From positions 22,501 through 86,500 of the forward strand of contig SMSO01000032.1 of NCBI GenBank assembly GCA_004764695.1: a stretch of DNA of 64,000 nucleotides, in the 5' to 3' direction. Position numbers and translations under genes: made by a program. Origin of the DNA: Schizochytrium sp. TIO01. Taxonomy: Eukaryota > Sar > Bigyra > Thraustochytrida > Thraustochytriidae. Each line of letters opens with the position of its first letter. Position 1 is the stretch's first letter. Positions 3,365 through 8,010 of this stretch are shown here, in pieces. The notes beneath the pieces are model-generated. The model was not told the origin of the DNA, searched no databases, and saw nothing but the letters and a program-made list of their open reading frames with translations.

Positions 3365-6300
3365 TTATTCAAAAATATAAGGGCCTAGACATCCCAATGC
3401 TTCACTAAAGGCAACATTTGCAGCTTCCAACATATCAAGCTCTACTTTCTGCGCAGCAATATAATCCTCTTTCGAGCTCTGCTCACCATTACTGCTAGCA
3501 AGCAGACTCTGTCCAGAACGACTGAGTTTCACTGAAGATGGCATAGAAAGTGCATTGTTTACAGCATGTATACAACCAAGCTCACGAGAGATCTGCTCAA
3601 GACGTGTCCTTCGTGTCTTTGCACAATAAATCTCTTCATTCAAGTCGAGCTCCTCGCGCATTTCATTCATCCCCCGGGACATTCTAGTATCAGTAAAATC
3701 CAAATGACATCAACTCCGTTCGTCAGTTGACAATTTCACGTCATCAAAAGGCACCCACAGTATTGCCAGTACAGTTTCATTTCGTCGCTGATACTATCGT
3801 GCTCTCTGTTAGATCCACACTCAACCAAACAAACAATTCCACAACAAACTTGCAATGGCGCGAAGAAAGACATCGGCAAAACAGCACACTAGACAACCCA
3901 CCACGCAACCAACCAACCAAGTCTCATGCACAAACAAGTCCACGAGCTACTGCTTAGACAACTTACTCAAGTGATTTCAGCGACCGGTTCTCTTTCAGCG
4001 CCGCAGCCACTGCCTTAGCGCCCTCTGAGCCGATATCGTTGCGTTGAAGACTGTCGATTGGATTGAATGATGGCAAGCAATACATTACACGTTACATATT
4101 ACAATAGATGCACGCATGCATGCATGGACATGAGTGATCTAGGTTGGCTTTCAGGATTTCATCTTTGTTGTGTTGTCATTTTGCTCTTTGTTCGATGGAT
4201 GTATACTCACTCACACAGACAACTTATCCATCCATCCATCCATCCATCCATCAAACAAACAAACAAGAGATTGCATAAACTTGCAAAACAACACCGACCC
4301 ACCCACCAAACAACAAACCAAGCATCATGTACAAACAAGTCCACGAGCAGCGCTGTTGCGTAGACAACTTACGATAGTGATGTCAGCGACCGGTTCTCTT
4401 TCAGCGCTGCAGCCACTGTCTTGGCGCCCTCGTCGCCGATCTGGTTGCGGGAAAGACTGTCGATTTGATTCAATGATGGCAAGCAATACATTACATTGCA
4501 ATGCATTACATTGGATACATGCATGGACGTGAGTGATCTAGGTTGGCTTTCACCATTTATCTTTGTTGTGTTGTCATTTTGCTCTTTGTTCGATGGATGT
4601 ATACTCACTCAAACAGACAACCCATCCATCCATCAAACAAACAAGCGATTGCATAAACTTGCAAAACAACACCGTCCCACCCACCAAACAACAAACCAAG
4701 CATCATGTACAAACAAGTCCACGAGCAGCGCTGTTGCGTAGACAACTTACTTGAGTGATGTCAGCGACCGGTTCTCTTTCAGCGCCGCACCCACTGCCTT
4801 AGCGCCCTCTGAGCCGATATTGTTCCACCAAAGACTGTCGATTTAATTGAATGATGGCAAGCAATACATTACACGTTACATATTACAATAGATGCACGCA
4901 TGCATGCATGGACGTGAGTGATCTAGGTTGGCTTTCAGCATTTATCTTTGTTGTGTTGTCATTTTGCTCTTTGTTCGATGGATGTATACTCACTCAAACA
5001 GACAACTCATCAAACAAAAACCGATTGCATAAACTTGCTAAACAACACCAACCTAAGCACCATTTAACAAACTAAGCATCATGTACAAACAAGTCCACGA
5101 GCAGCGCTGTTGCGTAGACAACTTACTTGAGTGATGTCAGCGACCTGTTCTCTTTCAGCGCTGCAGCCACTGTCTTGGCGCCCTCGTCGCCGATCTGGTT
5201 GTTTCTAAGACTGTCGATTTGATTCAATGATGGCAAGCAATACATTACATGTTACATGTTACAATAGATGCACGCATGCATGCATGGACGTGAGTGATCT
5301 AGGTTGGCTTTTAGCATTTATCTTTGTTGTGTTGTCATTTTGCTCTTTGTTCGATGGATGTATACTCACTCAAACAGACAACCCATCCATCCATCAAACA
5401 AACAAGCGATTGCATAAACTTGCAAAACAACACCGTCCCACCCACCAAACAACAAACCAAGCATCATGTACAAATAAGTCCACGAGCAGCGCTGTTGCGT
5501 AGACAACTTACAATAGTGATGTCAGCGACCGGTTCTCTTTCAGCGCCGCAGCCACTGCCTTGGCGCCCTCGTCGCCGATCTGGTTGCCAGAAAGACTGTC
5601 GATTTGATTGAATGATGGCAAGCAATACATTACATTGCAATGCATTACATTGGATACATGCATGGACGTGAGTGATCTAGGTTGGCTTTCGGCATTTACC
5701 TTTGTTGTGTTGTCATTTTGCTCTTTGTTCGATGGATGTATACTCACTCAAACAGACAACTCATCCATCCATCAAACAAACAAGAGATTGCATAAACTTG
5801 CAAAACAACACCGACCCACCCATCAAACAACAAACCAAGCATCATGTACAAACAAGTCCACGAGCTGCGGTGTTGCGAAGACAACTTACTATAGTGATGT
5901 CAGCGACCGGTTCTCTTTCAGCGCCGCAGCCACTGCCTTGGCGCCCTCGTCGCCGATTTTGTTGTAGGAAAGACTGTCGATTTGATTGAATGATGGCAAG
6001 CAATACATTACACGTTACATATTACAATAGATGCACGCATGCATGCATGGACGTGAGTGATCTAGGCTGGCTTTAACCATTTATCTTTGTTGTGTTGTCA
6101 TTTTGCTCTTTGTTCGATGGATGTATACTCACTCAAACAGACAACTCATCCATCCATCCATCAAGCAAACAGGCAATTGAACAGAATTTCAAGACAACAG
6201 CGACCGACCCACCAACCAACAAAGCAAGCCTATTGTACGAGCAAGGCCACGAGCTACTGCTTAGACAACTTACTTGAGTGATGTCAGCGACCGGTTCTCT

Positions 6301-8010
6301 TTAAGCGCCGCAGCCACTGCCTTGGCGCCCTCTGAGCCGATCTCGTTGCTTCCAAGACTGTCGATTTGATTCAATGATGGCAACCAATACATTACATGTT
6401 ACATATTACAATAGATGCACGCATGCATGCATGGACGTGAGTGATCTAGGTTGGCTTTCGGCATTTACCTTTGTTGTGTTGTCATTTTGCTCTTTGTTCG
6501 ATGGATGTATACTCACTCGAACAGACAACTCATTCATCCATCAAACAAACAAGAGATTGCATAAACTTGCAAAACAACACCGACCCACCCATCAAACAAC
6601 AAACCAAGCATCATGTACAAACAAGTCCACGAGCTGCGGTGTTGCGTAGACAACTTACAATAGTGATGTCAGCGACCGGTTCTCTTTCAGCGCCGCAGCC
6701 ACTGCCTTGGCGCCCTCGTCGCCGATACCGTTGCCAGAAAGACTGTCGATTTGATTGAATCATGGCAAGCAATACATTACACGTTACATATTACAATAGA
6801 TGCACGCATATATGCATGGACGTGAGTGATCTAGGTTGGCTTTCACCATTTATCTTTGTTGTGTTGTCATTTTGCTCTTTGTTCGATGGATGTGTACTCA
6901 CTCAAACAGACACCTCATCCATCCATCAAACAAACAAGAGATTGCATAAACTTGCAAAACAACACCGACCCACCCACCAAACAACAAACCAACCATCATT
7001 TACAAACAAGTCCACGAGCTGCGGTGTTGCGTAGACAACTTACGATAGTGATGTCAGCGACCGGTTCTCTTTCAGCGCCGCAGCCACTGCCTTGGCGCCC
7101 TCGTCGCCGATCTGGTTGTTAAAAAGACTGTCGATTTGATTCAATGATGGCAAGCAATACATTACACGTTACATATTACAATAGATGCACGCATGCATGC
7201 ATGGACGTGAGTGATCTAGGTTGGCTTTTAGCATTTATCTTTGTTGTGTTGTCATTTTGCTCTTTGTTCGATGGATGTAGACTCACTCAAATAGACAACT
7301 TATCCATCGATCCATCCATCAAACAAACAAATGAACCAAAGATTGCATAAACTTGCAAAACAAGAACGACAAAAGCAACACCGTGCAAATAAAGCAAGCA
7401 AGCAAGCAAGCAAGCAAGCAAGCAAGCAAGCAAGCAAGCAAGCAAGCAAGCAAGCAAGCAAGCAAGCAAGCAAGCAAGCAAGCAAGCAAGCAAGCAAGCA
7501 AGCAAGCAAGCAAGCAAGCAAGCAAGCAAGCAAGCAAGCAAGCAAGCAAGCAAGCAAGCAAGCAAGCAAGCAAGCAAGCAAGCAAGCAAGCAAGCAAGCA
7601 AGCAAGCAAGCAAGCAAGCAAGCAAGCAAGCAAGCAAGCAAGCAAGCAAGCAAGCAAGCAAGCAAGCAAGCAAGCAAGCAAGCAAGCAAGCAAGCAAGCA
7701 AGCAAGCAAGCAAGCAAGCAAGCAAGCAAGCAAGCAAGCAAGCAAGCAAGCAAGCAAGCAAGCAAGCAAGCAAGCAAGCAAGCAAGCAAGCAAGCAAGCA
7801 AGCAAGCAAGCAAGCAAGCAAGCAAGCAAGCAAGCAAGCAAGCAAGCAAGCAAGCAAGCAAGCAAGCAAGCAAGCAAGCAAGCAAGCAAGCAAGCAAGCA
7901 AGCAGGTGATCGGGCGAGCAAGCAGGTGATCGAGCGAGCGTGTTAACTTACCCTAATGTTGTAGCGCCATTCTGAAGCTCTTCAAGGGCATCGACAACCG
8001 CATACCACAT
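3365..8010 (-). CDS. Small LRR protein with one exon per leucine-rich repeat (377 aa, 11 exons)
   Basis: Spliced model read from the bases (minus strand, 5' to 3'): 8010-7952, 7127-7044, 6742-6659, 6357-6274, 5973-5890, 5595-5512, 5210-5127, 4834-4751, 4456-4373, 4050-3967, 3683-3365. All donors are GTAAGT and all repeat acceptors read CGACAG. Every intron is phase 2, and the nine inner exons are exactly 84 nt, so the frame stays open for 378 codons. Exon 1 gives a short helical cap (MWYAVVDALEEL...). Each inner exon gives a 28-residue ribonuclease-inhibitor/NLRC3-type repeat, consensus L-x-x-N-x-I-G-D/S-E-G-A-K-A-V-A-A-A-L-K-E-N-R-S-L-T-S-L-x. The last exon gives a ~106-residue helical, charged tail with no recognised domain. 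There is no signal peptide or membrane segment, so it is probably cytosolic. Variation is confined almost entirely to the exposed x positions. The ATG is the first in frame upstream; an earlier exon cannot be excluded. Function is unknown; protein or ligand binding is inferred from the fold. Confidence 0.75.
3967..7131 (-). repeat. Tandem array of nine ~385-bp LRR exon plus intron units
   Basis: Exons start at 3967, 4373, 4751, 5127, 5512, 5890, 6274, 6659 and 7044, giving spacings of 376 to 406 bp. Each unit carries an 84-nt exon and a ~290-320-bp intron. Introns share long near-identical stretches, for example the ATGCACGCATGCATGC block, a CATC microsatellite and the CAAACAACAAACCAAGCATCATG block. 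Three flavours of the sequence next to the donor recur out of order: GAGCAGCGCTGTTGCG (by 4344, 4724, 5094, 5482), GAGCTGCGGTGTTGCG (by 5861, 6631, 7014) and GAGCTACTGCTTAG (by 3942, 6249). This implies reshuffling by unequal crossing-over or gene conversion. Confidence 0.9.
7392..7905. repeat. Uninterrupted (AAGC)n microsatellite, about 128 copies
   Basis: The tetranucleotide AAGC repeats without a visible interruption for about 514 bp, followed by two degenerate CAGGTGATCG(G/A)GCGAG copies up to ~7940. It lies inside intron 1 of the minus-strand LRR gene. Because a 4-bp period yields the codon cycle AGC-AAG-CAA-GCA, which lacks stops on both strands, all six frames are open and give spurious SKQA or LLAC peptides. 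Confidence 0.95.

What the first reader, a model, noticed from the sequence alone, without database searches (positions are those of the whole stretch)
3967..7127. LRR exons hypervariable only at exposed binding positions, in otherwise near-identical repeats
Nine 84-nt exons and their introns are almost identical, but codons 2, 3 and 5 and the intron-split final codon differ in most of them. From N to C the residues in L-[xx]-N-[x]-I...L-[x] are FN/Q/S, SG/G/F, GS/E/N, SY/K/Y, SG/Q/F, RN/Q/N, WW/N/N, SR/Q/S, QR/D/E. These are the solvent-exposed beta-strand positions of an LRR. Elsewhere I see only scattered changes, several synonymous. Recent duplication should give uniform divergence, so either strong diversifying selection or targeted variation is implied. 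This resembles lamprey VLR or plant NLR LRR surfaces, and may be a recognition repertoire in a unicellular eukaryote.
Basis: partly seen in the sequence, partly recalled or inferred. Interest (0 to 1): 0.88.

Follow-up and report, generated by a model that had tools for sequence, protein, structure and literature searches.

The report
Shuffled hypervariable LRR genes in protist
A single-celled protist, probably a marine thraustochytrid, carries dozens of similar genes built from hundreds of copied leucine-rich-repeat exons that differ wildly mainly at a few predicted binding residues, which looks like a recognition repertoire shaped by strong selection and copying between genes, although what it recognises is unknown.

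Summary
The nine 84-nt exons (minus strand, 3967-7127) belong to one complete gene of 377 codons. An exon-core pattern has 510 matches in the genome; first-exon and last-exon probes have 36 and 53. The genes cluster near contig ends in a probable thraustochytrid.

In 235 to 265 cassettes read, three codons on the predicted beta strand approach saturation (pN 0.50-0.70, 14 to 19 amino acids each), while introns (0.089) and silent sites of other codons (0.10) do not. No stop occurs in 7420 codons.

'Targeted variation' is not supported. In 13 cassette pairs with shared rare scaffold alleles the variable codons differ about six times more than the scaffold (11.3% v 1.85%); 8 of 14 changed codons differ by one, nonsynonymous, step. 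Two copies of the window gene differ at 0 of 135 variable nucleotides but by a conversion-like patch. Several amino acids prefer different codons at different positions, against random mutagenesis.

Best reading: a germline recognition family under strong diversifying selection with cassettes exchanged by gene conversion. It works like PRDM9 fingers or fungal high-internal-conservation NLR repeats, but is built from LRR exons without an NLR core.

The parts
7952..8010 (-). Exon 1 of the LRR gene (M W Y A V V D A L E E L Q N G A T T L G|). Homology to the other 31 of 33 genes read starts only at about 7998 (GTTGTC), so the usual start (MSDHPR or similar) and the upstream side are replaced here.
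7392..7903 (.). (AAGC)128 microsatellite in intron 1. A tract of the same unit (8-132 copies) lies near exon 1 in 33 of 33 genes examined.
7044..7127 (-). LRR exon 1 (variable residues F N / Q / S)
6659..6742 (-). LRR exon 2 (S G / G / F)
6274..6357 (-). LRR exon 3 (G S / E / N)
6165..6309 (.). Conversion-like patch: 27 of the 37 substitutions between the C31 (window) and C14 copies fall here, 3 of them in the 3' part of LRR exon 3. The C14 version is 97.7% identical to the unit of LRR exon 7 of the same gene; the best non-self match listed for the C31 version is 84.6%.
5890..5973 (-). LRR exon 4 (S Y / K / Y)
5512..5595 (-). LRR exon 5 (S G / Q / F)
5127..5210 (-). LRR exon 6 (R N / Q / N)
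4751..4834 (-). LRR exon 7 (W W / N / N)
4373..4456 (-). LRR exon 8 (S R / Q / S)
3967..4050 (-). LRR exon 9 (Q R / D / E)
3365..3683 (-). Terminal exon: about 105-aa C-terminal region (MSRGMNEMREEL...GPYIFE, stop 3365-3367). No Pfam match and no relative found in the protein search. The C14 copy has a substitution in this stop codon and reads four residues further.

Best explanation
This is one member of a large germline family of small, probably cytosolic, LRR proteins in a thraustochytrid-like protist: a short N-cap of about 20 aa, a run of ribonuclease-inhibitor-type LRRs (one 84-nt phase-2 exon each; 4 to 12 in the seven arrays read whole), and an orphan C-terminal region of about 105 aa. 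Supported by the data: cassettes and pieces of them are copied between and within genes (gene conversion, unequal exchange), and amino-acid changes at L-[xx]-N-[x]-I and at the residue before it are favoured far above the silent rate. Inferred: these positions form the concave binding face, each protein binds a different ligand (virus, bacterium, parasite or a self/non-self marker), and the C-terminal region signals or pairs with a partner. Diversity is thus made by inherited mutation, selection and shuffling, helped by contig-end location and perhaps by the (AAGC)n tract at the head of the arrays, not by a somatic or targeted mutator.
For: Near-saturated variable codons beside young silent sites: pN X1 0.70, X2 0.60, X3 0.50, against pS 0.10 in the other codons and 0.089 in introns; pN/pS 7.0, 6.0, 5.0 with gene-bootstrap intervals 5.9-8.2, 5.2-6.9, 4.4-5.9 (the pS still includes the variable third base of the last Leu, so it errs high). 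Against the older yardstick of the terminal exon (median dS 0.216), X1-X3 (JC 2.0, 1.2, 0.84) are still about 4-9 times faster. No stop in 7420 codons of 265 cassettes, split codons completed with T; splice sites intact in 264 of 265 full-length cassettes. Copying between genes: cassettes in different genes with shared rare alleles and identical variable codons, e.g. C24:3983527 and C32:43282; a conversion-like patch between two copies of the window gene; cassette silent divergence (0.108) half that of the terminal exon. In 13 cassette pairs of indicated shared descent, variable codons differ about 6 times more than scaffold; 8 of 14 changed codons by one nucleotide, all eight nonsynonymous. 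Position-specific codons: Tyr TAT:TAC 15:0 at X1, 2:25 at X2 (p=1.4e-9). 16 of 25 genes with a good terminal exon on contigs over 1 Mb lie within 100 kb of an end (about 1 expected, p=1e-16).
Against: No ligand, expression or phenotype data. Variable codons show almost no association with flanking scaffold sites (r2 0.006, null 0.004), and of 73 cassette pairs with 3 or fewer scaffold differences most carry different codons, often by 2-3 nucleotides, which simple cassette copying does not predict. I read these as consensus-like scaffolds without recent common descent, because pairs with shared rare alleles behave otherwise, but that test rests on 13-17 pairs, two of them copies of the window locus. 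At X1 the codon preference is imperfect: Ser uses three codons and 47% of same-residue pairs at X1 differ in codon (15% at X2, 17% at X3). The window gene has lost the family's usual start, so it may itself be silent. One full-length cassette (C12) has a longer, frame-breaking exon, and my substitution-only exon pattern would miss most such cases; 2 of 53 terminal-exon matches hold stops.
Confidence: 0.72

Rival explanations
1. Targeted diversification: an active mechanism (mutagenic retro-copying, deaminase, or codon-scale micro-conversion from donor cassettes) rewrites the variable codons, as in diversity-generating retroelements or lamprey VLR assembly.
For: Variable codons are uncoupled from the flanking scaffold (r2 0.006), near saturation while a silent site 3 bp away is not (third base of the AAC between X2 and X3: pi 0.12), and most of 73 cassette pairs with at most 3 scaffold differences differ by whole codons. 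X1 Ser uses three codons.
Against: 0 of 135, 0 of 105 and 0 of 45 variable nucleotides differ in three pairs of near-identical gene copies. Of the 9 best-supported pairs of shared descent, 7 keep X1-X3 and the other 2 differ there by one nucleotide each. Position-specific preferred codons would be scrambled by random mutagenesis. X2 includes codons outside NNC (TGG 19, GCG 7, AGA 7, GAA 5 of 264), against an adenine-only template.
Confidence: 0.1
2. Old, functionally fixed gene family: each gene keeps its own specificity under purifying selection, and the introns look alike only because gene conversion or DNA-level constraint homogenises them; there is no present diversification.
For: Recent copies keep their codons; terminal exons have dN/dS about 0.77, not above 1; a conversion-like patch is seen in an intron.
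Against: A silent site lying between the variable codons, which conversion could hardly reach without them, is about as young as the introns; changes in cassettes of indicated shared descent are concentrated six-fold at the variable codons.
Confidence: 0.13
3. Decaying or selfish repeat: a subtelomeric repeat spread by exchange, with variable codons of no functional meaning.
For: Many copies lie near contig ends and beside long microsatellites; the window gene and its C14 copy have lost the usual start; 2 of 53 terminal-exon matches hold stops and one cassette breaks the frame.
Against: 0 stops in 7420 codons, splice sites intact in 264 of 265, terminal exon open in the 30 best of 53 matches; strong variation almost confined to a few LRR positions.
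Confidence: 0.05

Closest known systems
Fungal NLRs with highly conserved internal repeats (Podospora het-d/het-e; PMC4986451 passages, PMC12222747 abstract and outline)
   Same: Near-identical repeats with a few hypervariable positions on the binding face under positive selection; repeats shuffled within and between family members (concerted evolution).
   Different: Those are WD, ANK or TPR repeats in NLRs; the 2014 survey reports that no LRR motifs were found. Here the repeats are single LRR exons with introns, with no NACHT or NB-ARC core.
PRDM9 zinc-finger array (PMC3890296, passages)
   Same: Coding minisatellite whose units differ mostly by nonsynonymous changes at a few contact codons; concerted evolution between copies.
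   Different: A zinc-finger array in one DNA-binding protein; here there are dozens of intron-containing LRR genes in a protist.
Lamprey variable lymphocyte receptors (PMC3308329, passages)
   Same: LRR modules; hundreds of similar LRR cassettes and conversion-like copying; variation on the beta-strand surface (recalled).
   Different: VLR genes are incomplete in the germline and assembled somatically from donor cassettes; here the genes are complete, RI-type and without the caps or signal peptide I recall for VLRs.
NLRC3/RanGAP-like RI-type LRR proteins (PF13516) of protists, plants, Rickettsiales
   Same: Same repeat consensus; the 120 listed of 1200 hits (8000 candidates scored) have 33-62% identity over 48-84% of the query; PDB relatives include ribonuclease inhibitor and NLRP3.
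   Different: A search on the C-terminal region gave no relative; whether any hit belongs to an intron-separated cassette family was not tested.

Membership tests
RI-type LRR protein (Pfam LRR_6, PF13516) | Repeats score above the Pfam cut-off | tested here: met
   238 bits against a cut-off of 23.4, nine stretches, on the typed spliced protein
NLR receptor | NACHT or NB-ARC domain in the same protein | tested here: not met
   No such domain in the spliced protein. The genome has 7 NACHT and 2 NB-ARC matches, none at the loci read; the nearest to any terminal-exon match is C30:8392812, 6.7 kb from a weak match with stops at C30:8385867
Fungal-type high-internal-conservation repeat family | At least 85% aa identity between repeats over 100 aa or more | tested here: inconclusive
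   85.5% in the window gene; 74-84% in four other genes read whole
Fungal-type high-internal-conservation repeat family | Positive selection at few exposed positions and concerted evolution | tested here: met
   Counting methods only; no HyPhy-type test was run
Lamprey VLR | Germline gene incomplete, assembled from separate donor cassettes | tested here: not met
   Complete in-frame genes in the assembly; somatic change not testable here
Lamprey VLR | Signal peptide, cysteine LRRNT/LRRCT caps (recalled) | tested here: not met
   First-exon peptides of 33 genes show no cysteine or hydrophobic stretch, by reading; no LRRNT/LRRCT match in Pfam
Diversity-generating retroelement target | Changes confined to template adenines, synonymous positions randomised | tested here: not met
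   Codon tables; no reverse transcriptase or template repeat was sought
PRDM9-like coding minisatellite | C2H2 zinc fingers | tested here: not met
   No zinc-finger match; the resemblance is in the mode of evolution

The most novel reading that the evidence does not exclude
The arrays are a living cassette library: cells of this protist actively rewrite LRR binding codons by short, directed conversion between genes, giving a VLR-like anticipatory recognition system (against viruses, bacteria or foreign cells) in a single-celled eukaryote.
Probability: 0.08. Interest if true: 0.97.

Novelty: new variant of a known kind. Interest (0 to 1): 0.7.

Why it matters
It would extend the 'conserved scaffold, hypervariable contact residues, shuffled repeats' design from zinc fingers and fungal WD/ANK/TPR receptors to LRR exons in a stramenopile, with introns that serve as an internal neutral yardstick. 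With hundreds of cassettes and dozens of genes in one 64-Mb genome of an apparent thraustochytrid, it makes a concrete question testable: does a unicellular eukaryote keep an inherited receptor repertoire, and against what? A paper title that I saw only as a reference names the thraustochytrid Aurantiochytrium as a host of mirusviruses, one candidate pressure.

Tried and rejected
Hypermutation or targeted codon replacement: first favoured because variable codons have no LD with flanking sites and most pairs with 3 or fewer scaffold SNPs differ by whole codons. Rejected as the leading reading after demanding shared rare alleles and comparing near-identical gene copies. The LD contrast also weakened: with a lower allele-frequency threshold, upstream-intron LD is low too (r2 0.037 under 12 bp) and the downstream intron carries more of it.

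Chance: excluded by permutation, with positions chosen beforehand by eye, and by recurrence across the genome. Assembly error: unlikely, since contigs C31 and C14 give the same variable codons in all nine cassettes. C14 also holds the two other window stretches probed, at the same spacing, so it is taken as a second copy of the locus (haplotype or redundant contig) and left out.

Telomere repeats (TTAGGG)4 and (TTTAGGG)3 were not found, so 'subtelomeric' is inferred from contig ends only. The C-terminal region has no Pfam match; a search limited to proteins of 208-663 aa found 40 word-sharing candidates, none at E up to 10. Pfam also reported SpoU_sub_bind and MRM3-like matches above cut-off on the LRR part; I take these as side-effects of the repeats.

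Literature: searches (open PMC subset, listings only) showed no report of such a family in thraustochytrids; one listed transcriptome paper that holds 'leucine-rich repeat' once (PMC8917795) was not read, and subscription papers are not held, so absence from print is not shown.

Mended errors: the site classes printed for C31 v C14 were shifted by 800 bases and are replaced (one search's alignment dropped one cassette; one search compares all nine exons directly). The 'exon var', 'exon other' and third-position means used a misplaced D/S codon; only its per-site and intron values are used.

Rows dropped: 3 of 268 cassettes lack a full exon with AG/GT; one search used 245 of 248 unique contexts (of 265); one search used 235 of those 245 after removing C14 and the C23 end copy; the 13 pairs follow a rule I chose; one search's 25 genes are those of the 37 best of 53 terminal-exon matches that lie on 12 contigs over 1 Mb. 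The loci cover 57 intervals and about half of the 510 matches, and were brought in by similarity to the window's unit and exons, so they lean towards its close relatives. The exon pattern allows substitutions only and misses most indels.
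Full report
What is there. On the minus strand the window holds a complete gene: exon 1 (8010-7952), intron 1 with (AAGC)128, nine 84-nt LRR exons in phase 2 (7127 to 3967), and a terminal exon (3683-3365) that closes the frame. The units recur about every 385 bp. The nine residue sets in the finding are all correct. Splicing is predicted, not shown.

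The family. The window is C31:22501-86500 of a 64.06-Mb, 37-contig assembly. A 34-base exon core with up to 3 mismatches matches 510 times, against 0 for the reversed control; this includes second copies such as C14. The first-exon and last-exon probes match 36 and 53 places, of which 2 last exons hold stops and some are partial. The loci that came with these searches merge into 57 intervals holding 268 cassettes; of 265 full-length ones 264 have intact AG/GT, and the exception is a longer exon in C12 that breaks the frame. Of 33 genes whose first exon was read, 31 have the usual in-frame start (MSDHPR or similar), and 33 of 33 have a tract of the AAGC/GCTT unit near exon 1, of 8-132 copies. 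The two exceptions are the window gene and its C14 copy: their homology to the family starts inside exon 1 and the sequence upstream was found only in those two places. Seven arrays read whole have 9, 10, 12, 11, 9, 7 and 4 units (C14 copy left out); the array at C13:4.064-4.072 Mb has at least 17 (listing). Of 25 genes with a good terminal exon on contigs over 1 Mb, 16 lie within 100 kb of a contig end (expected fraction 0.042, p=1e-16). Two common telomere repeats were not found, so contig ends are not proven telomeres.

Host. A neighbouring channel protein's best named relative is from Hondaea fermentalgiana, 54% over 71% of the query, a thraustochytrid. The listing gives 63 Mb for Schizochytrium limacinum SR21, close to this genome's size, but the species is not established.

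Variation. In 264 cassettes X1 shows 19 amino acids, X2 15 and X3 14, whereas most other codons keep one residue in about 88% or more; exceptions are the D/S switch, an A/G position (194/67) and an Arg (222 of 264). Per-site diversity is 0.70-0.71 across X1, 0.43-0.71 in X2, 0.68/0.19/0.65 in X3 and 0.56-0.68 in the last three exon bases, against means of 0.073 and 0.106 in the flanking introns. Counting by codon class on 235 cassettes gives pN 0.70, 0.60 and 0.50 for X1-X3, pN 0.060 and pS 0.100 for the other codons, and 0.089 for introns. The pS counted inside X1-X3 is also high (0.72, 0.35, 0.50), as expected of multi-hit codons. Terminal exons of 30 genes have median dS 0.216 and dN 0.176 in 435 pairs. 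So cassettes are younger or more homogenised than their genes, and the variable codons outpace even the older yardstick.

Selection or targeted mutation? Two results first pointed to a special mechanism. Variable codons show almost no association with flanking sites, and most of 73 cassette pairs with nearly the same scaffold carry different codons. Sharing one variable codon barely lowers flank divergence, sharing X1-X3 lowers it by about a quarter to a half, and sharing all five by half or more. But nearness to the consensus is not recent descent. When I required rare scaffold alleles shared on both sides of X1-X3 in an unbroken tract, 10 of 17 pairs had identical X1-X3, and 7 of the 9 best supported; some of these are C14/C31 or same-gene pairs. 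In 13 pairs of indicated shared descent the scaffold differs at 79 of 4269 sites and the variable codons at 22 of 195 nucleotides, a six-fold excess. Six of the 13 show no change. Of 14 changed codons, 8 differ by one nucleotide (all nonsynonymous, taking T as the base after the splice), 4 by two and 2 by three; the larger ones lie in two pairs with 11 scaffold differences and in one end-codon swap. Near-identical gene copies show 0 of 135 (C31/C14), 0 of 105 (C23/C7) and 0 of 45 (C30/C5) variable nucleotides changed; C13/C6 shows 2 of 45 against 30 of 3232 elsewhere. C31 and C14 differ by 37 substitutions, 3 of 621 in other exon sites and 27 in one patch at 6165-6309. In C14 that patch is 97.7% identical to the unit of LRR exon 7 of the same gene, which I read as gene conversion.

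Codon identity gives a second test. Tyr is TAT:TAC 15:0 at X1, 2:25 at X2 and 15:0 at X3; Gly is GGA:GGC 23:0 at X1 and 0:64 at X2; Gln is CAA:CAG 20:4 at X1 and 2:25 at X3. Weaker cases are Asp X1 v X2 (p=0.02) and Glu X1 v X3 (p=0.05), and Ser at X1 uses TCC, TCT and TCG. Random mutagenesis would not be expected to keep such preferences; a limited set of codons spread by copying, with single-step changes under selection, would.

LD. Codons X1-X2 (adjacent) are associated (z 15.6), X1-X3 (z 6.1) and X2-X3 (z 3.2) less, and X1 with the end codon not (z -0.3). Scaffold sites also lose LD over tens of bases, so fine-scale exchange looks general. These measures ignore shared history and are used descriptively.

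What it works like. LRR_6 is the match; ribonuclease inhibitor and NLRP-type LRRs are among the solved relatives. By established LRR geometry (recalled, not modelled here) X1, X2, X3 and the split codon flank the beta strand on the concave face. The protein has no NB domain and no signal peptide by reading. A cytosolic receptor or adaptor is therefore the likeliest role, with the orphan C-terminus as output. The closest parallels are fungal NLR repeats (PMC4986451 passages; PMC12222747 abstract) and PRDM9 (PMC3890296 passages). Lamprey VLRs (PMC3308329 passages) share LRR cassette copying but not the complete germline gene seen here.

Limits. No population, expression or structural data were available.

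Noticed in passing
window 11750-13633 (+): An ORF of 627 aa with Roc (32.9 bits, cut-off 27) and a COR-A match just below its cut-off (31.3 of 35.3) lies about 3.7 kb from the LRR gene; ROCO proteins often carry LRRs (recalled), but no link to this family was tested.
   Followed up: partly
window 7392-7903: (AAGC)n differs between the two copies of the locus (128 units in C31, 118 in C14), and tracts of 8-132 units lie near exon 1 in all 33 genes read; a possible recombination or expression element.
   Followed up: partly
G000 C5:1796593-1799889 and C30:5515076-5518372: Two gene 3' ends on different large contigs are 100% identical over 3297 bp, suggesting a very recent translocation, an allele, or an assembly duplicate.
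   Followed up: no
G000 C5:7436, C31:5691606, C33:1962556, C24:3989695, C30:8374991, C34:2956872: A second group of the C-terminal region with only 42-44% identity to the window's; whether these genes carry LRR cassettes was not read.
   Followed up: no
window 3967-7127, exon nt 23-25 of each cassette: A GAC/TCA (Asp/Ser) two-state codon (134 and 103 of 264) differs at all three bases with few intermediates, and is at most weakly linked to the other variable codons (z from -0.8 to 2.5).
   Followed up: partly
window 3365-3367: The C14 copy carries a substitution in the window gene's stop codon and reads four residues further.
   Followed up: no
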